NCBI RefSeq assembly: GCF_021228795.1
Contig: NZ_CP089309.1
Span: 1,240,001 to 1,304,000 of the forward strand
Direction: 5' to 3'
Length of the DNA: 64,000 nt
Source: Thiocapsa bogorovii
GTDB lineage: Bacteria > Pseudomonadota > Gammaproteobacteria > Chromatiales > Chromatiaceae
The notes under the pieces are model-generated. The model made no database searches. It worked only from the letters and a program-made list of their open reading frames with translations, and was not told the DNA's origin. Position numbers and translations under genes: made by a program. How positions within the stretch are numbered: the stretch's first letter is position 1; each line of letters starts with the position of its first letter. Below are positions 22,315 through 39,622 of the stretch, in pieces.

Positions 22315-22360
22315 AAGATAAGCAACCCACAACCCCGGTAACATTGTACTTTGGTTAAAC
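22315..22360 (-). promoter_or_regulatory. Recurring motif site 1 with -10 hexamer, toward ygiW
   Basis: On the minus strand positions 22360-22341 read GTTTAACCAAAGTACAATGT. TATCTT follows 20 bases later at 22320-22315. The same motif and spacing recur at sites 2 and 3. The site lies between the divergent ygiW and histidine kinase genes and could control either. Confidence 0.65.
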
Positions 22361-22434
22361 AGGAGGGATTGAGCACGCGGGCTGGACACCTGCGCCAAAC
22401 GCGTGGACCCGGCAACCAGGCACTCGGATGAAAG

Positions 22435-24279
22435 ATGAGCTGGATAACGATTCTCTACCTCATGATGGCGGCCTTGTCGGCCACGATCGCCGGCATCTAT
22501 CTGGCGGCCTGGCTCATGCAGCGAGGCGCCTGGGCCTATCTCATGTTCGTGCTGCTCGCGCTCAGCATCGCCGGTCTCGCGGGAATGGAGCTCTGGATGC
22601 TGCGCGCGCAAACGCCCGCGGAGTATGCAACCGCATTACGCTGGTTCCAGGTTCCGGTCTGGTTCGGCTTTGTCGCCATTGTAGGTTTGGTCACGCTGCG
22701 CTTGCGGCCGCGCTTTCTGTGGCTGGGGTGGCTTGCCGTGGGGCTGCGGACGGTCGCGGTGGCAGCGACCTTCCTATCGGGGCCGAATCTCAATTTCACC
22801 GAGCTGACCGAAATCGAGCACGTCATGCTCCTCGGAGCGCCGGTCGCGCTGGCCGGAGAGGGTGTCCCCAATCCTTGGATGCTGACGGGTCAGGCGGCCC
22901 TGCTGTCGATGATCTTGTTCATCCTCGACGGGGGCGTCAGTGCGTGGCGGCGGGGAGAGGGCGTGCGGTCGCTCGCACTGGCGATCAGCATCTTTGTCGG
23001 CGTCGCGGTCGGCACGGCCCAAGCGGTGCTGGTGTTCTGGAACTTTGCCCACTGGCCGATTCTGGTCACGCCGTTGTTCGTCTTTGTTGCAGCCGCCATG
23101 GGCTCCGAGCTGAGCATCGGGCTGTTGCGAGCCGCGCGGGCGGAGCGCGACGCCCAGGCGAAGGACGCCGCCTTAAGCGTCAGCGAGCAACGCCTGAGCC
23201 TCGCGGCGGAGGCGGCCGATGCCGGGTTCTGGGGCCTCGATGCCCAATCAGGTGCGGTGTGGGCCACGGCAAAGACGCGCGAGCTCTTCGCGCTGCCTGC
23301 CGAGGGGGCGCTGAGTCTGGGGGATTTCCTGGAGCGGGTGCATCGGCATGACCAAGCGCGGGTGAAACAACTGATCGCGGCGGCGCTACGCTCGAACGAG
23401 CGCTATCGCACCGAGTTCCGGGTCGTCGACCCCGGTGGCCGGGTTCGCTGGCTCGCCGGCCTGGGTCGCAGCGTTGGCCCGACCGAAGCGGGTCCGCGCA
23501 CGCTGATGGGCGTGAGCGTGGACATGACGGCACGCAAGGCGATGCTGGACGCGCTGCGTCGGCAACGGGCACGGCTTGAACGCGTGTTTAGGGAAGAGAC
23601 CCTAAGCGAGCTGTCGGTCGCGCTGGCCCACGAGTTGAACCAACCATTGGCCATGATCCTGACCAACGCCGAGGCGGCCCAGGCACTGTTGGCCCAGACA
23701 CCGCCGAACCTGACCGAAGTCAAGGAAATTCTGGCCGATATCGCCAGCGCCGACCGGCGTGCGGCCGACGTGATTCGGCACCTGCGTTCGCTCCTCGAGC
23801 GCGGCGAACCTGACCGAGAAGACCTGTTGCTCGATGATGCGATTGATCGGGTGATCCAGCTGCTCGGTAACGACATCGACGACCAGTGCGTGACCTTGGA
23901 TCTGAGCCTGGCCGCGGACCTGCCCTCAGTGCAGGCGGATCGCATCCTGATCGAGCAGGTTCTGCTCAATCTCCTCAACAACGCCTGCGCGGCGGTGGCC
24001 GGCAACCCGGCGGGCGATCGCCGGGTCTCGGTCGCCACCCGCGCGCAGGCAGACGGGGTCCTGGTCGAGGTCACGGACAATGGATGCGGCGTGTCCGATC
24101 CGGAACGCATCTTCGAGACCTTCTACTCCACGACGCCCGGTGGGCTGGGCATGGGGCTGGCCATTGTGCGCTCCATCGTGAACAGCCACGGCGGGCGCGT
24201 CTGGGCCGAGTCGCCGGCTAGCGGCGGCGCCACATTGCACCTCTATCTGCCACTGACGGCGCCGCATCATGACCGATGA
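22435..24279 (+). CDS. Membrane sensor histidine kinase with PAS domain
   Basis: This 614-residue protein has about seven N-terminal membrane helices (residues 1-235), a PAS domain at about 255-370 (LSLAAEAADAGFWGLDAQSG) and a HisKA domain with the phospho-accepting His at residue 399 in ALAHELNQPLAM. The HATPase domain has its N box (LLNLLNNACAAV), G1 box (VTDNGCGV) and G2 box (GGLGMGLAIV). The H-box type resembles FixL/DctB-like kinases. The signal is unknown; a membrane-embedded sensor domain suggests a hydrophobic, redox or membrane-state cue. It overlaps the response regulator gene by 11 bp, so the two form one pair. Confidence 0.93.
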   Translation: MSWITILYLMMAALSATIAGIYLAAWLMQRGAWAYLMFVLLALSIAGLAGMELWMLRAQTPAEYATALRWFQVPVWFGFVAIVGLVTLRLRPRFLWLGWLAVGLRTVAVAATFLSGPNLNFTELTEIEHVMLLGAPVALAGEGVPNPWMLTGQAALLSMILFILDGGVSAWRRGEGVRSLALAISIFVGVAVGTAQAVLVFWNFAHWPILVTPLFVFVAAAMGSELSIGLLRAARAERDAQAKDAALSVSEQRLSLAAEAADAGFWGLDAQSGAVWATAKTRELFALPAEGALSLGDFLERVHRHDQARVKQLIAAALRSNERYRTEFRVVDPGGRVRWLAGLGRSVGPTEAGPRTLMGVSVDMTARKAMLDALRRQRARLERVFREETLSELSVALAHELNQPLAMILTNAEAAQALLAQTPPNLTEVKEILADIASADRRAADVIRHLRSLLERGEPDREDLLLDDAIDRVIQLLGNDIDDQCVTLDLSLAADLPSVQADRILIEQVLLNLLNNACAAVAGNPAGDRRVSVATRAQADGVLVEVTDNGCGVSDPERIFETFYSTTPGGLGMGLAIVRSIVNSHGGRVWAESPASGGATLHLYLPLTAPHHDR

Positions 24280-24889
24280 ACCGATGGTCTATCTGCTCGA
24301 CGACGAGCCCGAGATGCTGAAGGCTCTGACTCGACTGCTCCGCGCGGAGGGGTTTCAGGTTCAAGGTTTCAGCAGTGCGCGGGCGTTTCTTGGACACGCG
24401 CATCAGCAGGGCCCCGCCTGTCTGGTGCTGGACGTGGCGATGCCCTACATCGATGGCTTGGCAGTCCAGGAACGGCTGCACCAAATCAATGCCGAGCTGC
24501 CCATCGTCTTCCTCACCGGACATGGCGACATTCCCATGAGCGTGCGCGCCATGAAGGCAGGTGCGGAGAACTTCCTAACCAAGCCCGTGAATGCGGCGGA
24601 GCTGCTGCCGGCGATCCGCGGCGCGTTGCAACGCGCCGCGGATCGGCACTCCGAGCGCGAGGAACTGGCGGCCCTGCGGAAGCGACTCGCGTGCCTGACG
24701 CCACGGGAGCGGGAGGTGCTCGGCCACGTCATCGCCGGCAAGATGAACAAGCAGATCGCGGCGGACCTCGGCACCGGCGAGCAGAACATCAAGGTCCACC
24801 GCGGGCGTCTGATGCGCAAGCTGGGGCTGAGGTCGGTGGCGGAGCTGGTGCGGCTGGCGCAGCGGTTGGGCGTGCCGCCGGCAAAGTGA
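24269..24889 (+). CDS. FixJ/NarL-type response regulator
   Basis: This 206-residue protein has a receiver domain with acidic residues D11/D12, the phospho-acceptor D55 in LVLDVAMP and the conserved Lys in FLTKPV. A linker helix leads to a LuxR-type helix-turn-helix (residues about 140-200: LTPREREVLGHVIAGKMNKQ, then HRGRLMRKLG). It is the partner of the overlapping kinase. Regulators of this type bind short sites just upstream of the -35 region, which fits the position of the recurring motif found at five places within 22-40 kb; that link is an inference. Confidence 0.94.
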   Translation: MTDEPMVYLLDDEPEMLKALTRLLRAEGFQVQGFSSARAFLGHAHQQGPACLVLDVAMPYIDGLAVQERLHQINAELPIVFLTGHGDIPMSVRAMKAGAENFLTKPVNAAELLPAIRGALQRAADRHSEREELAALRKRLACLTPREREVLGHVIAGKMNKQIAADLGTGEQNIKVHRGRLMRKLGLRSVAELVRLAQRLGVPPAK

Positions 24890-25030
24890 GAGGGCGCGGC
24901 TGGCCTTGATTTGGCGTCTTTGGGATTGGCGTCTTGGGTGGTGGGCCTGCTCGATCGGCGTCGATTTTCAAATAGCTGGTTGTCCCGATCGCCGCGTGCA
25001 GCTTGGTCGAGCCGCTTACCGGCATTAGAC

Positions 25031-25048
25031 TATACCGCGATCTATACC
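25031..25048 (+). promoter_or_regulatory. Direct repeat in front of vapB, probable operator
   Basis: TATACC occurs twice, at 25031-25036 and 25043-25048, with 12-bp periodicity, 24 bp before the vapB start. VapB antitoxins usually bind such repeats for autoregulation. A GGAGAG ribosome binding site follows at 25060-25065. Confidence 0.45.
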
Positions 25049-25071
25049 ACGCGAAGGCAGGAGAGCTAAAC

Positions 25072-25338
25072 ATGCAAACCGCCAAACTATTCAAGAACGG
25101 TCGCAGCCAGGCCGTGCGACTGCCCGCGGAATTCCGCTTCGAGGGCGATGAGGTCGAGATCCGCCGCGATCCGGAGACCGGCGATGTGATCTTGAGCCCG
25201 ATGAACAAGTCCTTCCGTGACTGGCTGCACGAGCGCGACCGCCTGATCGCCAGCATGACGGAGGAAGAGCGCAAGGAGCTGGACGAATTCCTTGCGGATC
25301 GCGACCAGGGAGAAGATGTCGAGCGCGACTGGCCATGA
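25072..25338 (+). CDS. vapB: VapB-type antitoxin (AbrB/SpoVT fold)
   Basis: This 88-residue protein starts [20 protein letters not shown], the classic swapped-hairpin AbrB DNA-binding domain of VapB/VagC antitoxins, with [20 protein letters not shown] completing it. The C-terminal half is charged and would wrap the toxin. The ATG was chosen for its position 6 bp after GGAGAG. Its stop codon overlaps the vapC start by four bases, as usual for this module. Confidence 0.93.
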
Positions 25339-25733
25339 GCGGCCTGCTGATGCTGGACACCAACGCGTTGTCGGCGGTCATGAAGGCCCGTTCTCCCGAC
25401 CTAGACTTGCGCCTCTCCATTGAGCCATTCTGCATTTCCGTGGTCACCGAGGGCGAGATTCGCTTCGGCCTCGCACGCCGCCCGCAAAGGGTCGGATTTA
25501 CAGCGCTCGCCGAGGCCGTACTGAGCCGCATCGACATTCGCCCATGGAACTCCACAACGGCGCGTCGTTACGGTCCGTTGCGCGCCGAGCTGACCGCCCT
25601 CGGCAGGCCCCTGGCTCCGCTGGACCTGATGATTGCCGCCCACGCCATGGCCGAGGGCGCCACCCTGATCACCGCCGACCGCGCCTTCGCCCATGTCCCC
25701 GGTCTGGCCATCCAGAACTACGAGCAAGTCTAA
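25335..25733 (+). CDS. vapC: VapC-type toxin (PIN-domain ribonuclease)
   Basis: This 132-residue PIN-domain protein has the acidic catalytic residues in place: D8 in MLDTNALS, a Glu in [12 protein letters not shown] near residue 40, Asp in [10 protein letters not shown] near residue 98 and Asp in ITADRAF near residue 115. PIN toxins are Mg2+-dependent RNases that cut specific RNAs, mostly tRNAs or rRNA, when the antitoxin is degraded. The gene is intact and coupled to vapB, so this module should be functional, unlike the disrupted second vapC at the window's right end. Confidence 0.94.
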
Positions 25734-26050
25734 CCGTCACCCACGACCTCGTTGCGCCCCTGCGGCGTCCTCAAGGACGGCGGAGCCGTCTACCTCCAGT
25801 AACTCACCGAGCTGACCGACCTGCTATTCCTCCAGACGGGCGAGGCGACAGGAACCTAGGCGCGTTACTTGTGTTTAACCAAGGTGCAATAACCGCCTTC
25901 CGGGTCCGCTGCGTACACTCCTGGCTATCGCTGATTATCAGTCCTTGAGGTCTGGGCAGCCGCGTCCGTTTGTACATCACGGTTCGGCACGATCGTCGCC
26001 CACCACAAACACTTATCACCGCTGTTCTAATCCAGCCGGAGAGACATTCT
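25734..26050 (+). other. Intergenic region upstream of the arginine deiminase operon
   Basis: This 317-bp gap contains promoter motif site 2 (25873-25919) and a ribosome binding site GGAGAG at 26038-26043. No open frame in it has recognisable motifs. Confidence 0.5.
25873..25919 (+). promoter_or_regulatory. Recurring motif site 2 with -10 hexamer, arginine deiminase operon
   Basis: GTTTAACCAAGGTGCAATAA lies at 25873-25892, followed after 21 bases by TACACT at 25914-25919. The start of the first operon gene is 131 bp further on. The motif differs from site 1 at four of 20 positions. Confidence 0.7.
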
Positions 26051-26452
26051 ATGGAAGCAAAACTGAGCCAACGTGTCGGCGAGCTCGTCGCAAACGGATG
26101 GGAGCCGGTCACGACAACGGAAACCACCGCATCGCTGGTGGGACGCCGGCCGTTCGCCTGGTGGCTGTTCCTGATCGTGATCTTCCTGTTCCCGTTGTTC
26201 GGCGGCATCCTGTATCTCGTGTTTTGGCTCGCCACCTCGAAGGCGACGGTGTTTCTGCACACGGAAGGCGACGAGTTACAGGTCGCCGGAGACGAGTGGC
26301 TGATCCGGCTGCAAGAAGCCCAACGGGAGGCCTATGTGGAGCGGCAACAGCGGATCAAGGAAAAGGGGTTCCTGCGGGTGATGTGGCCGCAGCTCGTCGT
26401 TTCGCTGCTGCTGATCGCGCTTTGGGTCTATCTGTTGAAAACCTACTGGTAA
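26051..26452 (+). CDS. Small membrane protein of unknown function
   Basis: This 133-residue protein is not one I recognise. It has a soluble N-terminus (about 35 residues), a long hydrophobic segment at residues about 37-62 (AWWLFLIVIFLFPLFGGILY), a charged middle part rich in Glu/Gln/Arg (residues 70-105) and a second membrane helix at about 113-131. GGAGAG lies 7 bp before the ATG. It is the first gene after promoter motif site 2 and is followed 90 bp later by the amino-acid antiporter, so it probably belongs to the arginine deiminase operon. Confidence 0.7.
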   Translation: MEAKLSQRVGELVANGWEPVTTTETTASLVGRRPFAWWLFLIVIFLFPLFGGILYLVFWLATSKATVFLHTEGDELQVAGDEWLIRLQEAQREAYVERQQRIKEKGFLRVMWPQLVVSLLLIALWVYLLKTYW

Positions 26453-26542
26453 CGGCAAAACGTACCAGCTAGGCAGGGCGGCGGGTGACCCAGCACGTCT
26501 TTAGCGCAGGCCTGGCCCAACCAGCACACCGGAGCGACACCG

Positions 26543-27967
26543 ATGGCAGCGGATCAAAAATTCTCCCGGCTGACCCTAACAGCCATGGTCGTGGGGTCCA
26601 TGGTGGGCGCCGGCATCTTCTCGCTCCCGGCCCGCTTCGGCGCGGCCACCGGACCCTTCGGCGCCATCGTCGCTTGGATCATCGCCGGCGGCGGCATGCT
26701 GATGCTGGCGTTCGTGTTTCAGTCGCTGGCGGTGCGCAAACCGGAGATCGACGCCGGCATCTTCGCCTATGCCAAAGAGGGGTTCGGCTCTTATCTGGGG
26801 TTCGTGGCGGCCTTCGGATTCTGGATCGGGACCTGTCTCGGCAACACCACCTATTTCGTGCTGATCAAGTCGACGCTGGGGGCCTTCTTCCCGGTTTTCG
26901 GCGACGGCAATACGCCCCAGGCCATCGTCGTCTCGTCCGTTATCCTGTGGGCCTTTCATTTCACGATCCTGCGGGGCATCAAGGAGGCCGCATTCATCAA
27001 CAAGGTGGTGACCTTCGCGAAGATCCTGCCGATCTTTGTCTTCATCGCCTTCATGGCCTTCGCCTTCGATTACGACAAGTTTGCGGCGAGCTTCTGGGGC
27101 GGCGGGGACTACAGCGGCTCGCAGGTCTTCGACCAGGTGCGTAGCACCATGCTCGTGACCGTGTTCGTCTTCATCGGCATCGAGGGCGCCAGCGTCTATT
27201 CGCGCTATGCCAAGACGCGCGAGGACGTGGGCTGGGCGACGGTGATGGGATTCCTCGGGGTGCTCTGTCTGCTGGTGCTGGTGACCCTGCTCCCCTATGG
27301 CGTGCTCGAGCGGCCCGAGCTCGCGGATCTGCGTCAGCCGTCGATGGCGGGTGCCTTAGAGTCGGTGGTGGGCCCCTGGGGGCTCAAGTTCGTCAGCGCC
27401 GGGCTCATCGTATCCGTGCTCGGTGCCTTTCTGGCGTGGTCGCTGCTGGCCGCCGAGGTGCTCTACTCCGCAGCCAAATACGGCCTGGTCCCGAAGACCT
27501 TCGCCCACGAGAACCGGCATCAGGTCCCGTCCACGGCACTGTGGATCACGAACATCTTGGTGCAGTGCTTCCTGATCGTGACGATCTTCTCCCAATACGC
27601 CTTCGACCTCTCGCTGGAGATGACCAGCGCACTGACGCTGATTCCTTACATCCTGGTGGCGGGCTATGCGCTGAAGCTGGTACTGACCCGCGAGACCTAT
27701 GCGCCGGGCTCCAAGGACTGGGGACGCGACATGACCTGGGCGGCGATCGCGGTCGTCTACACCTTCTTCATGCTCCTGTCCGGCGGGTTCAAGCACCTGG
27801 TGCTCGCCTGCATCCTGCTGGCCCCTGGCACTCTGATGTTCATCCTGGCGCGGCGGGAGCAGGGCCAGACGATCTTTCGCCCGCTCGAGATCGCGCTGCT
27901 TGGCGTCTTCGTGGTCGGCGCGGCGGCCGGTATCTACGGCCTCGTCACCGGCATGATCACCATCTGA
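26543..27967 (+). CDS. arcD: APC-family amino-acid antiporter, probable arginine/ornithine exchanger
   Basis: This 474-residue protein has 12 membrane helices and the APC family start VVGSMVGAGIFSLPARFG, with the glycine-rich unwound region of helix 1 intact. Helix 6 contains FVFIGIEGASVYSRYAKTR, typical of the basic-amino-acid antiporter branch (ArcD/LysI-like). It is placed directly before arcA (32 bp gap), so arginine-ornithine or arginine-citrulline exchange is the natural role: import of arginine and export of the deiminase product pathway's end product. No ornithine carbamoyltransferase or carbamate kinase gene is nearby, so the exact exchange partner is uncertain. Confidence 0.88.
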   Translation: MAADQKFSRLTLTAMVVGSMVGAGIFSLPARFGAATGPFGAIVAWIIAGGGMLMLAFVFQSLAVRKPEIDAGIFAYAKEGFGSYLGFVAAFGFWIGTCLGNTTYFVLIKSTLGAFFPVFGDGNTPQAIVVSSVILWAFHFTILRGIKEAAFINKVVTFAKILPIFVFIAFMAFAFDYDKFAASFWGGGDYSGSQVFDQVRSTMLVTVFVFIGIEGASVYSRYAKTREDVGWATVMGFLGVLCLLVLVTLLPYGVLERPELADLRQPSMAGALESVVGPWGLKFVSAGLIVSVLGAFLAWSLLAAEVLYSAAKYGLVPKTFAHENRHQVPSTALWITNILVQCFLIVTIFSQYAFDLSLEMTSALTLIPYILVAGYALKLVLTRETYAPGSKDWGRDMTWAAIAVVYTFFMLLSGGFKHLVLACILLAPGTLMFILARREQGQTIFRPLEIALLGVFVVGAAAGIYGLVTGMITI

Positions 27968-27999
27968 TTGCGTCACTTTGAAACAGAGGACTCTTCGCG

Positions 28000-29262
28000 A
28001 TGACTAATTCGAGCAATGCGCCCGTGTATGGCGTCCACTCCGAGGTCGGCACCCTCCGCAAGGTCATGGTCTGTGCCCCCGGGCTCGCCCATACCCGTCT
28101 CACACCCACCAACAACGACGACCTGCTGTTCGATGACCTGCTGTGGGTGACGAACGCTAAGCGCGACCACTTCGACTTCATGCTCAAGATGCGTGAGCGC
28201 GGGGTCGAAGTCGTGGAGATGCACAACCTGCTGGCCGAGACGGTGGCCATCCCCGAGGCCAAGCAATGGCTCCTCGATCGCAAGGTGACCGAGAACAACG
28301 TCGGCCTGGCGCTGATCGACAGCACCCGGGCCTTTCTCGAGAGCCTGGAACCGCGAATCCTGGCCGACTTCCTGATCGGCGGCGTCTCGGTGGTCGATGT
28401 GCCCGACGAGTACTGCACCACGGGCTACCTGTCCCTGGTACGCGAGGCCCACGGCGTCTCAGAGTATCTGCTGGCCCCACTGCCAAACACCCTGTACACG
28501 CGCGACACCACCTGCTGGATCTACGGCGGCGTCACCCTCAATGCGATGTACTGGCCGGTGCGTCGGGAGGAGACCCTGCTGACCACCGCGATCTACAAGT
28601 TCCATCCGTCCTTCGCCAACGCCGGCATTCAAGTCTGGTGGGGCGACCCGGACAAGAACTTCGGGTTGGCGACCGTGGAGGGCGGTGACGTCATGCCGAT
28701 CGGCAATGGCGCGGTCCTGATCGGGATGAGCGAGCGCACCTCCCGCCAGGGCATCGGCCAGGTCGCCGCGTCGCTCTTTGCGAATGGTGCCGCCGAGCGG
28801 GTCATCGTCGCGGCCATGCCCAAGCTAAGAGCCGCCATGCACCTGGACACGGTCTTCACCTTCGCCGACCGTGACCTGGTCACGCTCTATGCGCCGATCA
28901 TGGATCAGGTGCACGCGGTCTCGCTGCGGCCCGGCGACAAGCCCGGCGGCATCGATACGACCCTGGAGAAGAAGCCCTTTGCCGACGTCGTCGCGGAGGC
29001 GCTGAACTTCAAGAAACTTCGGGTCATCGAGACCGGCGGCGACCACTATGCCGCCGAACGGGCCCAGTGGGACAGCGGCAACAACCTGGTCGCGCTCTCC
29101 CCTGGCGTCGTCGTCGCCTATGACCGCAACACCTGGACCAACAGCGAGCTGCGCAAGGCCGGGGTGGAGGTCATCACCATCGTCGGCGCCGAGCTCGGCC
29201 GCGGCCGCGGCGGCGGGCACTGCATGACCTGCCCGCTGATCCGGGACGCCGTCGACTTCTGA
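28000..29262 (+). CDS. arcA: Arginine deiminase
   Basis: This 420-residue enzyme converts L-arginine to citrulline and ammonia. The conserved elements are present: LYTRDTTCW near residue 170, EGGDVMPIG near residue 228, the catalytic His region MHLDTVFTF near residue 282 and the nucleophilic Cys at residue 408 in [10 protein letters not shown]. The ammonia produced can raise cytoplasmic pH. It sits between the antiporter and the TPR/barrel gene. The downstream arcB and arcC genes of the classical energy-yielding pathway are absent here, which suggests ammonia production or nitrogen use rather than ATP generation. A broken partial copy is at 39642-39788. Confidence 0.97.
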
Positions 29263-29375
29263 GGCTCGGGGACCGTGGGTTGGCTTTCAGTCCGACACAG
29301 AACCAGCCGGTCGGCAAGCGTCGTCGTCGGGCTGCAGCCCGACCCATAGCGGACGCAATCAAGAGGAAAAACCGC

Positions 29376-30533
29376 ATGAACGGGGATCGAGGCCGTGGGG
29401 TCGGGGCCGGGATTGCGGGATCTCTGATCGCGTCCTTGCTCGCTCTGGGTGGGCCTGCACAGGGCGCGGAGACCAGCGCGACCGAGGTAAAGCAAGACTC
29501 CATCTCCAGCCACCTCGAGCGTGGCCAGGCCTATTTGGACAAAGGCGAATACGCCAAGGCGGTGCTTGAGTTCGAGCAGGTCCTGCGCTATGACAACCTG
29601 CCCCCGGACCTGCGCGAGCAGGCCGAGATCTACTCACGCGCGGCGCAAAACTACAAGGAAGGCAAACGTCTGAGCGGCTTCGGCTATGCCGAGACGGGCG
29701 GCGGCTTCTACCGTGAGAACGTCACCCGCACCACCAATGCCCTGGGCGGCAACCCCACCCGTGACTGGTTCTGGAATGCACGCATCGGCGGCGGATTGGG
29801 CTACATCGTGACGGACGACATCTCGATCGACGCTGGCCTGGACTATCAGTTCCGCTACTACGACGACACCAACCGGCGGGACGACTCGGATCTGCGCTGG
29901 AACGCGGCGGTGATTCAGTCGCTGGATGCCGGCAGCCAGTCGATTGGCGTGCGAGGCCGGGCCAGTTACCGGGGCGGTGACGGCTATCGCCAGGACTATG
30001 GGCTGTTCGTCAATCGGGCCTTCGTCCTCGACCCGGATAACGAGATCGTGATCGAGGGTGAGGTCCGCTCCCGCGAATACCCCCGCGGCGACGAGCGCAA
30101 TCGCAGCCGGGACGTCGCCCAGGCCTGGCTGGGTTGGACACGCGCCCTGATGGACGGAAGGGCGGCGGTGACCGTCACCGTGAATGGCGGTCGCGAATGG
30201 GCGACCAATGATCGTGAGGGCGGGGATCAAACCATCTATGGCGCCCAGATCGACTGGAGCATGGACTTCAACGAACGCCTTGGTGCCTTTCTGTTTGGCT
30301 TTTGGGAGCACAACGGAACGCACGAGGATATCCCGTACGAGAACGCCTTTGGCGACCCCGGGCTACTCAGGCCAGACCTCGACATCTACGAGCTCGGTGG
30401 CGGGTTAACCTATGCGTTCGCCCCGGGCTGGTCACTGCGGCCGGAGGTGCTGTATATCCGCGATGAGGGCGACGCGGAGTTCAGCGACTACAGCGCGACC
30501 GAGATTTGGGTGAACGTGCGCAAGTCCTTCTAG
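29376..30533 (+). CDS. TPR plus beta-barrel outer-membrane protein (Slam-like), copy 1
   Basis: This 385-residue protein has a signal peptide (residues about 1-30, ending AQGAE) and one to two TPR repeats at about 45-95 (YLDKGEYAKAVLEFEQVLR). About 285 residues of alternating beta strands follow, ending in RKSF, where the C-terminal Phe is the outer-membrane insertion signal. TPR followed by such a barrel is the architecture of surface lipoprotein assembly modifiers (Slam/DUF560); whether it translocates lipoproteins or acts as a porin is not known. It follows arcA by 113 bp and is closed by a terminator. The start at 29376 was picked because it begins the signal peptide. A second copy is at 39823. 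Confidence 0.8.
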   Translation: MNGDRGRGVGAGIAGSLIASLLALGGPAQGAETSATEVKQDSISSHLERGQAYLDKGEYAKAVLEFEQVLRYDNLPPDLREQAEIYSRAAQNYKEGKRLSGFGYAETGGGFYRENVTRTTNALGGNPTRDWFWNARIGGGLGYIVTDDISIDAGLDYQFRYYDDTNRRDDSDLRWNAAVIQSLDAGSQSIGVRGRASYRGGDGYRQDYGLFVNRAFVLDPDNEIVIEGEVRSREYPRGDERNRSRDVAQAWLGWTRALMDGRAAVTVTVNGGREWATNDREGGDQTIYGAQIDWSMDFNERLGAFLFGFWEHNGTHEDIPYENAFGDPGLLRPDLDIYELGGGLTYAFAPGWSLRPEVLYIRDEGDAEFSDYSATEIWVNVRKSF

Positions 30534-30541
30534 AGAAACAG

Positions 30542-30564: not shown

Positions 30565-30645
30565 CCACCGACCCTAAGCGTCTACTTGGAGATCGAAGGG
30601 GGCGGTTGCCGCTCCGCCTATTCAATACCCCCTCCGGAGGGATGC

Positions 30646-32247: not shown

Positions 32248-32248
32248 G

Positions 32249-32469
32249 CATCTGGCCCTGCTGTCCCGGGTAAAGAGCGCAACCGCAGCGTTCTGGCTCG
32301 ATGCCCTGCAACTCGTTCATAAACAGATCGGTTTCGTTGCGCTTCTCCTGGTGCTGATTCACCCGCTGGTACTGCTGCTCGCCGGCTATCCTTGCAGAGG
32401 ATGCTGCTCGATGTGGGCACGATCAACCAGGGTGAGTTCGACAGGCTCAAGGAGAAGGCGCTCGCCTAG
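32249..32469 (+). pseudogene. Relic of a ferric-reductase-like / SHOCT-domain protein
   Basis: One frame encodes HKQIGFVALLLVLIHPLVLL, resembling a heme-binding helix of the ferric reductase-like membrane domain. From 32401 another frame encodes MLLDVGTINQGEFDRLKEKA and a stop at 32467-32469, a good match to the SHOCT short C-terminal helical hairpin (LLDxGxIxxxEFxxLKxKLL). The two parts fill the gap between the YfcC-type gene and the AI-2E gene. They look like the ends of one or two genes whose bulk is missing. Confidence 0.4.
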
Positions 32470-32563
32470 TCGACGCGCGATCGTCGATCGACCAGCCCCA
32501 ATCGCTCACCCGGGTGCGGGCTTCCGTGTCGAGGAATCAACCCAACTGAGGAGCAATCGCCCC

Positions 32564-33613: not shown

Positions 33614-33732
33614 CAGCGGAGCCGAAAGAAGGTAGCGGCGTTGCCCTCGACCGATTTTTCGCGCAAGGTCCGCCCCTGCGGCTGTCGACTCGTCGAGTCG
33701 GTTTGCGTGTCCGTCCCGAACACTTCAGTGCG

Positions 33733-35358
33733 ATGACGAATTCAATGCAGCTAAACATTGTCGGTCTACTCGTCGGAACCGTTTTCTTTGCCTTTTCGCT
33801 GACGCCCTCGCTGCTGCCAAGACCGTTTTTCATTCAGGGCATTCTTTCCGGCCTGTCGTTTTCGGCAGGCTATGGTCTTGGCGTTGCGACGGTCGCCCTG
33901 TGGAACTATCTGCAATTGCCCGTGTTGCGCAAGCGTACCGCGCTCGTCATCAAGTCCATCGCAGCACTGCTGTGCCTGGTTGTCGCGGTGAGCTTTCTAT
34001 GGCAGGCGAACCATTGGCAGAACTCGCTTCGCGAGCTGATGGGCATGGAGGAGCAAGCCGGCCTCCAACCCTTGCTGCTCGGCCCGATCGCGGTGTTGTT
34101 GTTCCTGATCCTGCTGGCGCTCGCGCGCGCGTTTCGCTGGGTGTTTCAGGTGCTTGCGGTCAAACTGCGGCGTTTCATGCCGCCGAGAGTTTCACATCTG
34201 CTCGGTATTGTCGCCGCAGTGGCGCTCTTCTGGTCCGTGATCGACGGCGTCTTGCTGAGCAGCCTGCTGCGCGTGGCCGATCGTTCGTTTCAGGAGCTCG
34301 ATGCGCTGATTCAGGACGATTTGCCCCGTCCGACCCATCCCGACCAGACCGGCAGTCAGGCTTCGCTGATCAATTGGGAAGACCTCGGCCGCCAGGGCCG
34401 CAAGTTCGTTGCCGGCGGGCCCGACGCCGAAGACCTGAGCCGCTTTTTTTCTTCCCCGATGCCGGCGCCGATTCGCGTCTATGTCGGCTTGAACTCAGCC
34501 GACAGTCCCGAGCAGAGGGCACGTTTGGCGCTGGAGGAATTGAAACGCGTCGGCGGCTTCGAACGCTCGACACTGCTGCTTGTGACGCCGACCGGCACAG
34601 GCTGGATCGATGCAGCATCGCAGGATCCGGTCGAGTACCTGCATCGTGGCGACATTGCCACGGTGGCGGCCCAGTATTCCTATCTGAACAGCCCGCTCGC
34701 ACTGCTGACCGAGGGCGCCTATGGGGCCGGGATGGCCCGCGCCCTGTTCGCTGAGATTTACGGCTACTGGCGTAGCCTGCCCCGCGACGCGAGACCGAGG
34801 CTCTACCTCAACGGTTTGAGCTTGGGTTCGTTGAACTCCGATCTGTCGTTCGATCTTTACGACATCATCGATGACCCATTCAACGGCGCACTCTGGAGCG
34901 GCCCACCCTTCCGCAACGACGCCTGGCGGCGTATGACCGATCAGCGCGATCCCGGCTCGCCCGCGTGGCTGCCCCGCTTTCGTGGCGGGTCGGTGGTGCG
35001 GTTCATGAACCAAGACGGCGGATTGGACAGCGGCGATCAACCCTGGGGCGCCTTTCGGATCGCCTTCCTCCAGTACGCGAGCGATCCGATCACCTTCTTC
35101 AGTCCGCGTTGGGCGTGGCGTGAGCCGGATTGGCTGCAGGCACCCCGCGGCCCCGACGTGTCGCCCGACCTGCGCTGGTTTCCGCTCGTGACGATGCTGC
35201 AACTGGCTGCCGACATGGTAGCGGGCGCCAGCCCGAAAGGCTTCGGTCACGAATTCGCGCCGGCGCACTACATCGACGCATGGCTGGCACTGACCGAACC
35301 GCCAGGCTGGAGCGACACCGAGGTGGCCCGGCTTAAGACGATCTTCGAAGCTGAGTGA
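33733..35358 (+). CDS. Membrane-bound alpha/beta-hydrolase (Abhydrolase_9 type), copy 1
   Basis: This 541-residue protein has four to five N-terminal membrane helices (residues about 5-190) and a C-terminal alpha/beta-hydrolase domain with the nucleophile Ser363 in the elbow GLSLGS. The segment LLVTPTGTGWIDAASQDPVE marks the family of paired Abhydrolase_9_N/Abhydrolase_9 domains. Substrate unknown; a lipid or ester near the membrane is plausible. ATG 33733 was chosen because the same codon and context are conserved in the second copy at 41414. The two copies differ by only a few percent at the protein level by eye. Confidence 0.88.
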   Translation: MTNSMQLNIVGLLVGTVFFAFSLTPSLLPRPFFIQGILSGLSFSAGYGLGVATVALWNYLQLPVLRKRTALVIKSIAALLCLVVAVSFLWQANHWQNSLRELMGMEEQAGLQPLLLGPIAVLLFLILLALARAFRWVFQVLAVKLRRFMPPRVSHLLGIVAAVALFWSVIDGVLLSSLLRVADRSFQELDALIQDDLPRPTHPDQTGSQASLINWEDLGRQGRKFVAGGPDAEDLSRFFSSPMPAPIRVYVGLNSADSPEQRARLALEELKRVGGFERSTLLLVTPTGTGWIDAASQDPVEYLHRGDIATVAAQYSYLNSPLALLTEGAYGAGMARALFAEIYGYWRSLPRDARPRLYLNGLSLGSLNSDLSFDLYDIIDDPFNGALWSGPPFRNDAWRRMTDQRDPGSPAWLPRFRGGSVVRFMNQDGGLDSGDQPWGAFRIAFLQYASDPITFFSPRWAWREPDWLQAPRGPDVSPDLRWFPLVTMLQLAADMVAGASPKGFGHEFAPAHYIDAWLALTEPPGWSDTEVARLKTIFEAE

Positions 35359-35676
35359 TGCAGCGCAAAAGCGGCTGGTTGCGCCTACGGCGTATCTGCT
35401 GCTGATGTTCATGCCGAAGAAGACATTTCCACCGCCTTCGCACGACCGCCCGACCCGCGCCGAAGCAACGACAGCGCAACCGAGAACCGGGTGATGGTCC
35501 GCGGGTCGTTCCAGCAGGATTGAACGCCAGCATGATTTAACCAAAGTGCAATGGGCTGCCGATGCCTGCTCCTGTAGCCTTCGCCCGCGGTGGGCCGATC
35601 TTAGGGTTCGCTCACCGAGAGCGATGCCGGCTGGATCAATTTAGGCCCTACGAATAGCAAGACAGGGTGACATGAC
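35359..35676 (+). other. Intergenic region with promoter motif site 3
   Basis: This 318-bp gap separates the hydrolase from the small lipoprotein. Apart from motif site 3 with its -10 hexamer, I see no gene or strong hairpin. Confidence 0.5.
35535..35580 (+). promoter_or_regulatory. Recurring motif site 3 with -10 hexamer, lipoprotein/DUF3611 unit
   Basis: ATTTAACCAAAGTGCAATGG lies at 35535-35554 and TAGCCT at 35575-35580, the same spacing as at sites 1 and 2. The first start codon downstream is 35677. Confidence 0.68.
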
Positions 35677-35817
35677 ATGGAACCGAATCTCACAAGTCTA
35701 TTCGTACTTGGGCTGATCGTCGGTGTTTCCGGCTGCAGCTCGGTCAGCCTGAGGCCTTGCCGCACGTTTGATCCGGATTTCGGCTGCTGTGTCAGCAGCA
35801 AACCCAGGTCCACCTAA
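35677..35817 (+). CDS. Small Cys-rich lipoprotein
   Basis: This 46-codon gene encodes MEPNLTSLFVLGLIVGVSGC and then a short mature part ending DPDFGCCVSSKPRST. The hydrophobic stretch followed by VSGC is a good lipobox, with the modified Cys at residue 20. The mature peptide would be only 27 residues and includes three further Cys. AGGGTGA precedes the ATG. It lies between promoter motif site 3 and the DUF3611 gene (30 bp gap), so the two are probably cotranscribed. Function unknown; it resembles entericidin-like or other small lipoproteins only in size. Confidence 0.6.
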   Translation: MEPNLTSLFVLGLIVGVSGCSSVSLRPCRTFDPDFGCCVSSKPRST

Positions 35818-35847
35818 CCAACACACCGAACATCGGCCGAGGTAGTC

Positions 35848-36459
35848 ATGTTGAAGAAACTTGTCGACGATTTGCACGTCGCGAAGATCGATGGTCTGGC
35901 CGCCACCTTCCAACGCTCGGGCCGGATTGGTTTCTGGTCTCAGCTCATCCTGGCATCGTTTCCGATCATACTGATGCTGTTCATCTTCACCTTCTCCGGC
36001 AGTGTGTCGGGTCCACGTTCCGGGCTGCCCATCGTCGGCTGGTTGTCGATGCTGAACCTCATGGTGCTGGTGTTTACCACCATCTGGTTCTTCCGTTATC
36101 AGAACCTCGGCAAGCGAATTGCCGATCCCGTCACGCGCCCGACCGAGTCGATGGTTGTCGGTACCGTCTGGATCGGCCTGGTCGCAAGCGGTCTCGGCCT
36201 CCTCTTTTCGCTGGTTGTGATGCTGGTGGAGGTTGGCCAAATGCTGTTTTACTTCCTGTCCGCGCCCCAGGGCGGCATCCCGACCTTGCAGACCACGCAG
36301 TCCTCGCTCGGCGGGTCGTGGGTATCCGCCGTCGACCTGGCCAGCCTCATGGCTTTGGTCCTGATGCTCGCCGCCGAGGTCCTCGCGACGATGCTCGGCA
36401 TGTGGCTGTTGTTCCGTACAACACATGTCTACGGTGCGCAAGCGAAAGACGCGGCTTGA
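35848..36459 (+). CDS. DUF3611 family membrane protein
   Basis: This 203-residue protein has four membrane helices (about 30-48, 62-82, 100-130, 165-190). The N-terminal part LAATFQRSGRIGFWSQLILA and the segment FFRYQNLGKRI match DUF3611, a family related to the cyanobacterial/chloroplast Tic21-type membrane proteins. Proposed roles for relatives include ion transport at the membrane; none is proven. It follows the small lipoprotein and is the last gene of the site-3 unit. Confidence 0.8.
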   Translation: MLKKLVDDLHVAKIDGLAATFQRSGRIGFWSQLILASFPIILMLFIFTFSGSVSGPRSGLPIVGWLSMLNLMVLVFTTIWFFRYQNLGKRIADPVTRPTESMVVGTVWIGLVASGLGLLFSLVVMLVEVGQMLFYFLSAPQGGIPTLQTTQSSLGGSWVSAVDLASLMALVLMLAAEVLATMLGMWLLFRTTHVYGAQAKDAA

Positions 36460-36905
36460 TCGGGCGCGCGCCCTGGGGACGCGCAAGCCGTTTGCACCGA
36501 TGACATGGCGCACCCTCGTCTCACGGTCATGGCGCAGTGCCACCCCGCAAGATGAAGCGTTTGTTTCATCGCAAACCTGAGCCGGGCCAGCCTGATGGCA
36601 CTGACGGCGGCCATCGCCGTCGTCGCCATATGGACCTGGTGGGCCGATCAGCACCCGCGCAATCACGGGCAGCGGCTACTCTCGGGAAAACCGCAATGTC
36701 ACCACCGATACCCTAGGCGGCGGCCCGGCTCGGCACGGGTCCTCGCCCTGATTCCCAGGTTCTTGGCCTGATTCCCACTAGACTCGTTTCGTGGTGATCC
36801 GATGGACCGCTTTGCGCTCGCGCTTCCGCGCCGCGACGATAAGGATGATCAGTCGGCCGTTGCGGCTTGCAAAGCCGCGATGTCTGCGCCTCGCCGCAGT
36901 GTTGC
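36460..36905 (+). other. Intergenic region with inverted repeats
   Basis: No supported gene is visible in this 446-bp gap. It holds an inverted repeat GATGAA/TTTCATC at 36551-36570 and a perfect 7-bp inverted repeat GCGGCTT-GCA-AAGCCGC at 36862-36878. The latter recurs at 43140-43156 with the same following bases. Confidence 0.45.
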
Positions 36906-38270
36906 CTAACCGGAGCGTCCTCTGCCGGACGCGGCACCGGGTGCAGCCCCGGGCGAATGGGCCGACGCCGATGGGGGTGGATCACCGCCATCTCGCCCGG
37001 CGCGGATCGCGATGATCACCGGTGCCAGGATTGCCGCGACGATGCCTGCCGCGAAGCCGTTGTTGTAGAGGTTTAGGCCAGCGTGGACACCGCCGACACT
37101 GAGCGCGGCCGAGGAGTGCACGAAGCCGGCGACAATGCCCCAGTGCCAGCCAAAGTGGCCGGCGATCGGCGCCAGGTTGGTCGCAAAGAGTGCGGCCAGC
37201 AGGATTGAGGGATCAGCCGCGCCCCATGGTTTCGCCAGAGAGCCGAGAAACACCCCAAGCATGACCGGCACGAAATTGAACGGGTGCTTGCCGAACGCCG
37301 CGAAACCGACGATCGACAGGAGCGCGCCAATCACCGGACCATTCAGGTCACCGCCCACGGCCAGCACATACGCCATGCCGATCGCGCCGCTCACACCCAT
37401 GTTGATTAGCGTTGCCCCAAGCCCGGCGATCGCGACGAAATCGCTCGGCGACTGACCGCTCTCACGCAGCAAGCGGCGAAAGCCGATGAGCGCTCGGCGA
37501 TCCAGCACAACGCCGAGCACGATCATCGAGGCGAACAGCACGCCGAGGAAGGGCCCCAGCAGGAGGTCGTTGCCGCTGGTCCAGATGAAGACCGGATCAG
37601 GTACGAAGCCATAGGACTTGTAGAGTGCGACAACCAGCGTCCCGACCAGTCCGGCGGTGAACCCCATGTTGTACAACGCAAAGCCCATGTGGGCCTTGAA
37701 CAGCTGGGCGGCCGCCGCCGGCAGAATGAAGCCGATCAAGAGCCCGGTGCCGACGCCCAGCGGTATGGCGAGCTCAAACGGCAGCAGGGAGCTGAACAAG
37801 ACCTCGCTGACGATCGGCGACAAAGCGATGCCGAAGAACGCCGTATTGATGTTGGTCGCAAATGTCTGCCCCTTAAAGCGCGAATAGAGGGCGACGCCGA
37901 GCACGATGAACCAGACATTGAGCAGATTCTTGCCGAACAGCCCGAAACCCAGCACGAGGAAGAGCGCGGCAACGGCCGCACCGGTCATCTTCGCCCGCGA
38001 CAGAGAATAGACGGCGCAGCTCGCCAGCGTCAGGAGCCCGGCGCTGACCAGACCGGCACCGATACCGCCGACGCCGAAATAGTCCGTAAGCAGGGTGTCG
38101 CGAGAGATCAAAATGGCACTCAGGCCTTTCAGGATTTCGGCCGGGCTGTCGACCAGAAAACCAAAGACCACGAACGTGAGCGCGTAGGAGGCGACGACGA
38201 GCAGGATCAGCCTATCGCTGGCTGGGCGGTATCCGCCGCTTTCAACGGGTTGCTGTGGATCGGTTGCCAT
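36906..38270 (-). CDS. DUF1576 family multi-pass membrane protein
   Basis: This 454-residue protein consists almost wholly of membrane helices, about 11-12. Two similar halves carry repeated patterns such as FGIALSPIVSEVLFSS and TNLAPIAGHFGWHWGIVAGF, the latter with clustered His and Trp. It matches DUF1576, an uncharacterised transporter-like family. The last 35 residues are Pro/Ala/Gly-rich and likely disordered. It is divergent from the urea transporter gene, with a 231-bp shared upstream region that contains a weak copy of the recurring motif (site 5). Confidence 0.85.
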   Translation of the reverse strand: MATDPQQPVESGGYRPASDRLILLVVASYALTFVVFGFLVDSPAEILKGLSAILISRDTLLTDYFGVGGIGAGLVSAGLLTLASCAVYSLSRAKMTGAAVAALFLVLGFGLFGKNLLNVWFIVLGVALYSRFKGQTFATNINTAFFGIALSPIVSEVLFSSLLPFELAIPLGVGTGLLIGFILPAAAAQLFKAHMGFALYNMGFTAGLVGTLVVALYKSYGFVPDPVFIWTSGNDLLLGPFLGVLFASMIVLGVVLDRRALIGFRRLLRESGQSPSDFVAIAGLGATLINMGVSGAIGMAYVLAVGGDLNGPVIGALLSIVGFAAFGKHPFNFVPVMLGVFLGSLAKPWGAADPSILLAALFATNLAPIAGHFGWHWGIVAGFVHSSAALSVGGVHAGLNLYNNGFAAGIVAAILAPVIIAIRAGRDGGDPPPSASAHSPGAAPGAASGRGRSG

Positions 38271-38367
38271 CTGCTAAATCTCGGGCTGGCGATGTCAATC
38301 GGACCGAGTTCTTGGCGGTCAGCGGGGTTACCAGGGCCAGAGCGAGTCTAGAGATCGCCCGAAAACT

Positions 38368-38387
38368 CTGCAACCAAAGGTCGATCG
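38368..38387 (+). promoter_or_regulatory. Weak recurring motif site 5 upstream of the urea transporter
   Basis: CTGCAACCAAAGGTCGATCG shares the core AACCAAAGGTC with site 4 but lacks the leading TTT, and no good TAnnnT hexamer is seen at the expected distance. It lies 114 bp before the urea transporter start. Confidence 0.35.
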
Positions 38388-38501
38388 TGTGCAAGGATGT
38401 CGGGTACCAAGCAGACGCGGCCCTCGCTCTGGCGCTGCCTAGGCCATGCTCCCCGCCCGGCATCGCTGCGTCGACGATCGGTGCGCGCAATGGAGGAAAC
38501 C

Positions 38502-39479
38502 ATGAATCAGTCTGACAATTGGTGGGAAAACGCCTGCGAGAGCGCATGGCCCCTTCGCTTCGTCGACATCAATCTGCGCAGCATCGGGCAGGTGATGTTT
38601 CAGGACAAGCCGCTCTCGGGTCTGTTTTTTTTCGTCGCGATCGGTTGGGGTTCCTACGCGGCCGATGCACCGGAAGTCGCCATCGGCGGCCTGCTCGCGC
38701 TGATCGTCGCAACCCTGACCGCGCTCTGGCTGCGGGTCGACACCGCGGCGCTGAACGCGGGGCTCTATGGTTTCAATGCCTACCTGGTCGGCATCGCATT
38801 AACCACCTTCCTTGCGCTCTCCCCACTGCTGTGGGTCTACGTCGTGCTCGGCGGTGCCTTTTCGGTGGTCGCCACGCTGGCCATGACCAACCTCATGAAG
38901 ACCTGGGGCATCGCCGCTCTGACCGCGCCCTTCGTACTGATCACCTGGTTGCTCTTGCTCTCGTCCAACGCCTTCTCGGCCCTTCCGACCGACGCATTGC
39001 CCTTGAGCAGCCTGATCGAGCCGATTGCGCCGGAGGCGGCGAACCCGCTGCAGCTCATCGACTTCCTCGAAGGCATGGTCTCCAGCATCTCACAGGTGTT
39101 CGTGAAGGGTAACGGGATCGCCGCACTGCTCATTCTAATCGGTCTCGCGATCGGTTCGATTGCCGCGGCCGGCTATGCGCTCGTGGCGGCGCTGATCTCG
39201 GTCATCGTCGCACATCTGCTCGGTGCCGAGAGCCAGATCATTACCGCCGGCCTGGTCGGATTCAACCCGATCCTCACCGCGATCGCCGTTGGAACCGTAT
39301 TCAATCGGCCCGGCTTACGCTGCGCGCTGCTCACTCTACTGGCGACCGTCCTCACCGTGCTGGTCCAGGGGGCGATGGTCGTGGCATTGAAGCCGTTCGC
39401 AATCCCGACGCTGACGGCCTCGTTCGTGCTGGTCACCTGGCTGTTCTTGCTGGCTAAGCCGGACCTGGCCGAAGACTGA
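38502..39479 (+). CDS. Urea transporter (UT family)
   Basis: This 325-residue protein has about ten helices and the two-fold repeated UT architecture. Each half carries the family signature around GLYGFNAYLVGIALTTFLA and GLVGFNPILTAIAVGTVF (the LxGfNxxLxgxAl pattern lining the urea pore). The domain preceding the first repeat, with SIGQVMFQDKPLSGLFFF, also fits. GGAGG lies 6 bp before the ATG. It would provide passive urea entry or exit. No urease gene is in the window, so it may serve export or work with an unlinked urease. Confidence 0.92.
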   Translation: MNQSDNWWENACESAWPLRFVDINLRSIGQVMFQDKPLSGLFFFVAIGWGSYAADAPEVAIGGLLALIVATLTALWLRVDTAALNAGLYGFNAYLVGIALTTFLALSPLLWVYVVLGGAFSVVATLAMTNLMKTWGIAALTAPFVLITWLLLLSSNAFSALPTDALPLSSLIEPIAPEAANPLQLIDFLEGMVSSISQVFVKGNGIAALLILIGLAIGSIAAAGYALVAALISVIVAHLLGAESQIITAGLVGFNPILTAIAVGTVFNRPGLRCALLTLLATVLTVLVQGAMVVALKPFAIPTLTASFVLVTWLFLLAKPDLAED

Positions 39480-39602
39480 CGTCGGTTGGAGCTGCTCCCG
39501 CCGTTTTGGGTCCGCACCCAGGTCATTGCGACGAGCGTCCGTTGGCCAATCATGCCGGCTCGATCCGGGCCTGACCCGACCAAAACCGCCTGACGCTTGC
39601 TT

Positions 39603-39622
39603 GTTTAACCAAAGGTCAATAG
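39603..39622 (+). promoter_or_regulatory. Recurring motif site 4, in front of the second arcA/barrel copy
   Basis: GTTTAACCAAAGGTCAATAG matches the consensus at most positions. No -10 hexamer is evident downstream; the site runs directly into the arcA remnant, so the promoter may have been damaged by the same deletion. Confidence 0.5.

What the first reader, a model, noticed from the sequence alone, without database searches (positions are those of the whole stretch)
22315..39622. A 20-bp motif plus -10 hexamer marks a candidate new regulon
RTTTAACCAAAGTGCAATRR occurs at 22360-22341 (minus), 25873-25892, 35535-35554 and 39603-39622, with a weaker form at 38368-38387. At the three best copies a TAnnnT hexamer (TATCTT, TACACT, TAGCCT) follows after 20-21 bases. 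Downstream genes are ygiW, the small membrane protein/antiporter/arcA/barrel operon, the lipoprotein/DUF3611 pair, the second arcA/barrel copy and perhaps the urea transporter. The membrane kinase and FixJ/NarL-type regulator at 22435-24889 lie next to site 1 and are the natural candidate controllers.
Basis: partly seen in the sequence, partly recalled or inferred. Interest (0 to 1): 0.75.

Follow-up and report, generated by a model that had tools for sequence, protein, structure and literature searches.

The report
DNA switch sites beside FixJ-type regulator
A short palindromic DNA sequence repeated four times beside a bacterial sensor-regulator gene pair is very probably the docking site through which that regulator switches on neighbouring genes, and the same site-plus-promoter layout recurs beside many related regulators in several bacterial phyla.

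Summary
The motif is real: four copies in 17 kb, none expected by chance, and one further weak genomic match, inside an ORF. It is an imperfect 18-bp palindrome. Three copies carry TAnnnT 20-21 bases after the 20-mer; motif plus hexamer was found nowhere else in the genome at up to 2 mismatches. In a congener with diverged flanks, sites 1 and 2 keep motif and hexamer. The adjacent regulator is FixJ/StyR-like. Of 80 relatives (45-65% identical, several phyla), 32 have a comparable site just 3' of the regulator gene; in 35 sites picked on motif alone, 21 have TAnnnT at the same spacing. A second set of 34 more distant relatives had none. Helix residue 172 tracks the motif (K: GG/CC in 14 of 16; others 3 of 16), not significantly after kinship correction. 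A Methylococcales relative with the same helix core has the motif (17 of 18) and hexamer. It works like NarL/FixJ activator sites near -43 (ACTU, tod, DosR boxes): a new member of a known kind. Signal unknown; binding and expression untested.

The parts
22341..22360 (-). Site 1, GTTTAACCAAAGTACAATGT, between ygiW (minus) and the kinase gene (plus)
   Evidence: 18 of 20 kept in G369 and in G372 while flanks diverged
22315..22320 (-). TATCTT, putative -10 of the ygiW promoter, 20 bases after site 1
   Evidence: TATCCT in G369 and TATCTT in G372 at the same spacing
25873..25892 (+). Site 2, GTTTAACCAAGGTGCAATAA
   Evidence: identical in G372 (a near-identical stretch), 18 of 20 in G369, where it lies 29 bases after the regulator gene
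25914..25919 (+). TACACT, putative -10, 21 bases after site 2
   Evidence: TATAGT in G369 after 20 bases
35535..35554 (+). Site 3, ATTTAACCAAAGTGCAATGG (exact match)
35575..35580 (+). TAGCCT, putative -10, 20 bases after site 3
39603..39622 (+). Site 4, GTTTAACCAAAGGTCAATAG; no hexamer; probably a truncated, decayed promoter
39654..39788 (+). Remnant of arginine deiminase (residues 377-420, 84% identical to the copy at 28000, plus stop)
38368..38387 (+).
   Evidence: background score, no hexamer
22435..24279 (+). Membrane histidine kinase: hydrophobic N-terminal region (stretches within residues 1-232) without a Pfam family, PAS_3, HisKA, HATPase_c
24269..24889 (+). FixJ/StyR-type response regulator (receiver + GerE HTH), the proposed activator at sites 1-3
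21815..22162 (-). NirD/YgiW/YdeI-type OB-fold stress protein; proposed target of site 1
26051..26452 (+). Small membrane protein (133 aa, no Pfam family); first gene after site 2
26543..27967 (+). Arginine-ornithine antiporter-like permease
28000..29262 (+). Arginine deiminase (arcA)
29280..30533 (+).
   Evidence: second copy 39793-41022
35677..35817 (+). 46-aa protein with a lipobox-like VSGC (by eye); first gene after site 3
35848..36459 (+). DUF3611 protein; second gene after site 3
25072..25733 (+). MazE-type antitoxin and PIN-domain gene pair between the regulator gene and site 2; not found in the 40 kb taken from G369

Best explanation
The 20-mer is the operator of the response regulator encoded next to it (24269-24889). 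The membrane kinase (22435-24279) phosphorylates the regulator on an unknown signal; a dimer binds the imperfect palindrome ATTNNACC-AA-RGTNNAAT through its two LuxR/GerE helices and, because the palindrome centre lies about 43.5-44.5 bp before the predicted start, contacts RNA polymerase in place of a good -35 element (class-II activation) at three promoters: ygiW (site 1), small membrane protein-antiporter-arcA-barrel (site 2) and lipoprotein-DUF3611 (site 3). Site 4 is a remnant left when a duplicated arcA block was truncated. Shown by computation: motif, spacing, rarity in the genome, footprint, linkage to orthologous regulators, helix-motif association. Inferred: phosphorylation, activation rather than repression, transcription starts, operon extents. 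Unknown: the signal.
For: Chance excluded. Loose motif+hexamer composites at up to 2 mismatches occur in the genome only at sites 1, 2 and 3, with one reversed-control hit in each of the two searches. Against G369, sites 1 and 2 are 18 of 20 each and keep TAnnnT, while 60 bp upstream and 100 bp downstream are 25-35% identical without gaps. No better than 3 of 6 matches to TTGACA lies 15-19 bases before the hexamers. Nearest solved regulators are StyR 1yio, E 5e-51, then FixJ 5xso, 8e-38. In 80 relatives' loci palindrome hits (11 of 14 or more) within 250 bp 3' of the regulator number 25 in 19,372 bp against 56 in 1,270,982 bp elsewhere, 29-fold; of 35 sites chosen on motif alone 21 have TAnnnT 22-23 bases after the 18-mer (= 20-21 after the 20-mer), against 7 hexamers at the 58 other offsets and 0 at 22-23 in the reverse direction; hits away from the regulator (104 placements) have 18 hexamers at these two offsets and 39 at the 48 others scanned. 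Residue 172: K with GG/CC in 14 of 16, non-K in 3 of 16, Fisher p 2.4e-4. L032 has the same TGEQNIKVHR helix core, the motif at 17 of 18 and TATATT after 20 bases. Starred sister regulators L052 (K172, GG/CC) and L064 (Q172, GA/AT) switch together.
Against: No binding or expression data. Of 80 relatives 48 have no site 3' of the regulator under the fixed rule, 11 of 27 with K172 and 6 of 14 with Q172 among them. In a second set (34 regulators, 44-54% identical; 25 with I/V/S172, 9 with K/R172) none has one. The palindrome score was framed after seeing hits. An earlier PWM test over the 80 loci was not decisive: 289 hits, control mean 215, 3 of 30 controls as high. Helix-motif association is not significant after correction for kinship: 2 independent pairs on well-supported branches. 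Targets are not conserved: the small-protein homologue in G014, the DUF3611 homologue in G068 and the own DUF3611 paralogue lack the site in the stretches seen. In G372 ygiW after site 1 is matched only over residues 78-115, and in the 40 kb taken from G369 ygiW was not found.
Confidence: 0.82

Rival explanations
1. The palindrome is the operator of a different LuxR/FixJ-type regulator of the same genome (for example a CrbR-like protein), and the neighbouring pair is coincidental or itself a target.
For: The genome has three other FixJ-type regulators at 40-41% identity; the ACTU motif of CrbR has the same geometry.
Against: In the 8-10 kb taken around each of those three there is no palindrome with hexamer; two palindromes of score 10 without hexamer were seen. 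The motif is confined to the cluster of this regulator; the linkage recurs beside relatives in other phyla and the motif tracks the helix of the linked regulator.
Confidence: 0.1
2. The regulator represses these promoters: it occupies the -35 region and blocks polymerase until released.
For: The site abuts the expected -35 position; some LuxR-type regulators repress from such positions (recalled).
Against: No good -35 hexamer is present (best 3 of 6), the spacing to TAnnnT is kept across phyla, and the geometry equals that of the CrbR-dependent acs promoter, where the repeat spans -52 to -36 and is needed for activation.
Confidence: 0.08
3. The copies were spread by duplication or a mobile element and mark repeated DNA, not a regulon.
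For: The window carries duplicated arcA/barrel/hydrolase blocks, and site 4 stands before one of them.
Against: Flanks of the sites share no similarity beyond the motif; sites 1 and 2 are kept in a diverged congener.
Confidence: 0.02

Closest known systems
CrbS/R and the ACTU motif (acetate utilization, Gammaproteobacteria; PMC5715377, abstract and passages seen)
   Same: LuxR-type response regulator; imperfect inverted repeat at -52 to -36, directly before the RpoD promoter, needed for activation; listed sites read ACY-NN-NGT in the centre (my reading)
   Different: Different regulon (acs, actP and others), SLC5-containing hybrid kinase, other outer half-site bases, regulon spread over the genome
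StyR/TodT and the tod box ATAAACN4GTTTAT (PMC5874301, passages seen)
   Same: StyR is the nearest solved structure by sequence; AAC-N4-GT core; K175 and V176 conserved
   Different: StyR His179 is Gly here; outer bases differ; no aromatic-catabolism genes were noticed in the cluster
DosR/DevR box TTSGGGACTWWAGTCCCSAA (PMC2275270, two passages seen)
   Same: Palindrome with an ACT-WW-AGT centre bound by a LuxR-family response regulator; the GG/CC variants beside relatives look closest
   Different: More distant regulator (DevR 3c3w E 6e-11 against StyR 5e-51), mycobacterial hypoxia regulon
FixL/FixJ
   Same: Regulator scores 197 bits to the FixJ model and kinase 193 bits to the FixL model
   Different: Both below the curated cut-offs (255 and 850); the kinase's PAS region matches FixL only weakly (43-46 bits) and other PAS proteins better; hydrophobic N-terminal region

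Membership tests
NarL/FixJ (LuxR-type) response regulators | N-terminal receiver with phospho-acceptor Asp and C-terminal GerE helix-turn-helix | tested here: met
   Response_reg 97.5 bits, GerE 65.7 bits, both above cut-off; D55 invariant among three homologues
NarL/FixJ (LuxR-type) response regulators | Binds an inverted repeat | tested here: inconclusive
   Palindrome linked to the regulator and to many relatives and associated with a helix residue; binding itself not tested
FixLJ oxygen-sensing system | NCBIfam FixJ and FixL equivalog cut-offs | tested here: not met
   197.3 against 255 and 193.2 against 850 bits
FixLJ oxygen-sensing system | Haem-binding PAS sensor | tested here: inconclusive
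   A PAS region exists and matches the FixL model weakly, other PAS models better; haem ligands not examined
StyR/TodT-type | tod box ATAAACN4GTTTAT | tested here: not met
   Sites read TTTAACCAAAGTGCAA or close: the AAC-N4-GT core only
StyR/TodT-type | Recognition residues K175, V176, H179 (PMC5874301 passage) | tested here: not met
   K175 and V176 kept, position 179 is G
CrbR/ACTU regulon | SLC5-containing hybrid kinase and acs/actP targets | tested here: not met
   Kinase has PAS_3, HisKA and HATPase_c only; genes after the sites are ygiW, the arcA operon and DUF3611
Class-II activated sigma-70 promoters | Activator site centred near -41.5 to -44 before a -10 | tested here: met
   Centre at -43.5 (sites 1, 3) or -44.5 (site 2) if TAnnnT is -12 to -7; same offset in 21 of 35 relatives' sites. 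Geometry only
Class-II activated sigma-70 promoters | Mapped start and activator-dependent transcription | not testable with these tools
   needs RNA data

The most novel reading that the evidence does not exclude
The regulator belongs to a cross-phylum subfamily of FixJ/StyR-like regulators that travel with a self-describing promoter cassette just 3' of their gene (18-bp palindrome, 22-23 bases, TAnnnT), read by a simple helix code at residue 172 (K = GG/CC; R = GC; Q = other, mostly GA or A/T-rich). Cassette and code are kept while targets are exchanged almost freely: arginine deiminase, YgiW and DUF3611 here; sulfatases, lone receiver proteins, OmpW or polyphosphate kinase elsewhere. If true, regulons of many uncharacterised two-component systems could be predicted from sequence.
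Probability: 0.48. Interest if true: 0.65.

Novelty: new member of a known kind. Interest (0 to 1): 0.5.

Why it matters
It turns an unannotated two-component pair into a testable system with named promoters, predicted start points and a predicted DNA code. The same motif-plus-hexamer layout beside relatives in several phyla would allow regulon prediction for a set of orphan FixJ-like systems, and it suggests that regulator and operator are kept together while targets are replaced. The targets here (arginine deiminase, arginine-ornithine antiporter, YgiW-type stress protein) hint at a stress, pH or nitrogen role, which is inference only.

Tried and rejected
Rejected: (1) Fifth site before the urea transporter: background score, no hexamer. 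(2) Repeat or mobile-element origin: no shared flanks. (3) A genome-wide regulon: at up to 2 mismatches only sites 1-3 carry motif plus hexamer. (4) A conserved target set: no site near the small-protein homologue in G014, the DUF3611 homologue in G068 or the own DUF3611 paralogue; each was found in 1 other genome of 274 searched. (5) Shared target genes in relatives' loci: tblastn of 18 window proteins against 80 loci gave kinase and regulator matches and one weak AI-2E match; matches of these two below 40% identity were not printed. (6) Replication of the helix code in a second set (34 loci): no sites at all, mostly I172 or V172 regulators, so it served only as a contrast; a first attempt lost 18 minus-strand loci and was repeated. 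(7) Plasmid relatives: 6 of 468 records taken; no hit of 11 or more in L154, L155, L157 and L158 (L155 and L158 have EKT helices); one hit with hexamer in L153 (ERT helix, GC at positions 4-5, 2 kb upstream of the regulator) and one in L156 (EIT helix, some 370 bp after the regulator). (8) Permuted-column PWM test: not decisive (289 hits, control mean 215, 3 of 30 controls as high); the palindrome score replaced it and was framed after seeing those hits, so the 29-fold figure is not blind. (9) Papers: nine searches. One search found one paper, on ACTU. One search (five strings of the palindrome or motif) found 23 papers, 15 listed; all 15 look unrelated by title and abstract; 8 not seen. Searches list only parts of 433, 534 and 14 papers. 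So I found no report of this palindrome with a FixJ-type regulator beyond the related ACTU, tod and DosR boxes, in this library only; most subscription journals are not held.
Full report
What was checked. The window lies at 1,240,001-1,304,000 of a single 5,649,927-base contig. In that genome the pattern with up to 3 mismatches has 5 matches, 4 of them in the window, and none for the reversed control. The fifth lies inside an ORF and has no hexamer at the spacing. The four window copies lie between genes that have family or homologue support: ygiW and the kinase; a PIN gene and the small membrane protein; a hydrolase gene and the small lipoprotein-like gene; the urea transporter and the arcA remnant. 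Mechanical ORFs of 80 aa or more overlap them in the list; I treat these as spurious.

Anatomy. The 20-mer holds an imperfect palindrome, ATTTAACC-AA-AGTGCAAT. At sites 1, 2 and 3 TATCTT, TACACT and TAGCCT follow after 20, 21 and 20 bases. A search of the genome for the loose composite TTNNACCAARGTNNAAT + 22 or 23 + TANNNT with up to 2 mismatches returns sites 1 and 3 (22) and site 2 (23; site 3 reappears there at 2 mismatches), and nothing else; each search had one reversed-control hit. If TAnnnT is -12 to -7, the palindrome centre lies at -43.5 or -44.5. The best match to TTGACA 15-19 bases before the hexamers is 3 of 6. No hexamer lies at that spacing in the direction of the kinase gene, so autoregulation through site 1 is not indicated.

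Site 4 and the fifth site. Thirty-one bases after site 4 begins a fragment of arginine deiminase (residues 377-420, 84% identical), and second copies of the barrel and hydrolase genes follow; the duplicated blocks are 77-93% identical in DNA. There is no TAnnnT at the right distance. I read site 4 as a promoter that lost its -10 when the duplicated arcA was truncated; this is inference. The sequence at 38368 is not above background.

Footprint. Two genomes of the same genus keep the pair of sites beside the regulator; among 11 genomes of the genus 5 have any match at up to 3 mismatches, two of them (G374, G378) with one match each that I did not examine. Between the window and G369, sites 1 and 2 are each 18 of 20 identical and the hexamers remain TAnnnT (TATCCT, TATAGT); the 20-base spacer of site 1 is 13 of 20; 60 bp upstream and 100 bp downstream are only 25-35% identical without gaps (alignment with gaps could raise this). 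In G372 site 1 is 18 of 20 with TATCTT and flanks at 37-38%; site 2 is identical, but that part of G372 is nearly identical to the window throughout and says little. In G369 the regulator gene is followed after 29 bases by site 2 and then the small membrane protein gene; in the window a MazE/PIN pair lies between them, found in G372 and not in the 40 kb taken from G369.

The regulator and kinase. The regulator has a receiver and a GerE domain; its nearest solved relatives by sequence are StyR (1yio, E 5e-51) and FixJ (5xso, 8e-38). It scores below the curated FixJ cut-off, and the kinase far below that of FixL. The kinase's PAS region matches the FixL model at 43-46 bits and other PAS models better; its first 232 residues hold several hydrophobic stretches. 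The recognition helix reads TGEQNIKVHRG; K175 and V176, named as DNA-contacting in StyR, are kept and H179 is G.

Relatives. The window's other genes are not shared, apart from one weak AI-2E match. Scoring the palindrome ATTNNACCNNGGTNNAAT (12 fixed bases plus two pairings), hits of 11 of 14 or more within 250 bp 3' of the regulator match number 25, in 25 of 80 loci, 29 times the density elsewhere in the same loci. The score was framed after looking at hits, so this figure is not blind. Motif hits away from the regulator show the same: 18 hexamers at the two offsets, 39 over the other 48 scanned. With a rule using palindrome plus hexamer, 32 of 80 loci have a site from 20 bp before to 300 bp after the regulator's stop, against 87 of 3,200 random 320-bp stretches of the same loci. 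By residue 172 the sites fall as K 16 of 27, Q 8 of 14, R 3 of 10, H 2 of 2, M 1 of 1, I 1 of 9, S 1 of 3, and none of 14 with A, V, P or T. A second set of 34 regulators (44-54% identical, 24 with I172 or V172) has none, including 9 with K or R172.

Protein-DNA association. Among the 32 sites, regulators with K172 go with GG at positions 4-5 or CC at 14-15 in 14 of 16, others in 3 of 16 (Fisher p 2.4e-4). The window has Q172, and its sites lack GG/CC. The two K172 exceptions, L035 and L051, only just pass the threshold. Correcting for kinship leaves 2 independent pairs on well-supported branches, too few for significance. One sister pair with good support is L052 (K172, ACTGGACTAAGGTCCAAT) and L064 (Q172, ATTGAACTAAGGTATAAT). 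The strongest single case is L032, Candidatus Methylumidiphilus: regulator 64% identical, helix core TGEQNIKVHR the same as here, and a site 17 of 18 identical to site 3 with TATATT after 20 bases, placed after its kinase gene. On a tree of the receiver part, the window's regulator falls with four Verrucomicrobiota (98/92; L032 was not in that tree).

Targets elsewhere. Of 30 gene products after relatives' sites scanned are lone receiver proteins; others include OmpW, DUF1254/DUF1214, PPK2 and a sigma-54-type regulator. In another pick of 33 six are sulfatases. Gene picking was mechanical, so single cases may be wrong. The content of the regulon is therefore not conserved. In the window the set (arginine deiminase, arginine-ornithine antiporter, YgiW-type protein, DUF3611) hints at a stress, pH or nitrogen role; this is inference only.

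Comparison with the known. The geometry equals that of the ACTU motif of CrbR, an imperfect inverted repeat at -52 to -36 directly before the RpoD promoter, shown by mutation to be needed for activation (PMC5715377, abstract and passages). It shares the ACY-WW-RGT kind of centre with the DosR box (PMC2275270, passages) and the AAC-N4-GT core with the tod box (PMC5874301, passages). I therefore file the regulator as a new member of the NarL/FixJ kind with its own operator, not as FixJ, StyR or CrbR.

Verdict. Confidence that this regulator acts through these sites is 0.82; signal, binding and the sense of regulation in the cell are untested.

Noticed in passing
window 29280-30533 / 39793-41022; 33703-35358 / 41384-43033: Duplicated barrel and Abhydrolase_9 genes with arcA cut down to its last 44 codons in the second copy (blocks 77-93% identical).
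   Followed up: partly
window 25072-25733: MazE-type antitoxin/PIN-domain pair between the regulator gene and its proposed first target; found in G372, not in the 40 kb taken from G369.
   Followed up: partly
L082:5389, L101:6031 (Paraburkholderia), L046:12549: Single palindromes with TAnnnT at 22-23 bases on both sides, suggesting divergent promoters served by one site; in L082 PPK2 lies on one side and a weak VIT match on the other.
   Followed up: partly
L028, L038, L040, L041, L049, L104: Related sulfatase genes (55-63% identical to that of L028) follow the regulator in six loci, four from Verrucomicrobia and two from Proteobacteria, perhaps an older target.
   Followed up: partly
window 12277-21199 and 48599-56472: The cluster lies between an Mrp/complex-I-like antiporter gene with genes that look like an RND pump on one side, and genes that look like a V-type ATPase operon (by eye) on the other.
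   Followed up: no
L011:14987-16648 (G369): Beyond site 1 in G369 lie an ORF that looks like a transposase remnant (by eye) and an MnhE antiporter subunit gene instead of ygiW.
   Followed up: partly
window 60518-63660: Two long minus-strand ORFs that look like transposases (by eye).
   Followed up: no
L156:6005 (Rhizobium leguminosarum plasmid): A palindrome with hexamer some 370 bp after an EIT-helix regulator and before a large kinase gene, so the layout may reach beyond the K/Q/R172 group.
   Followed up: no
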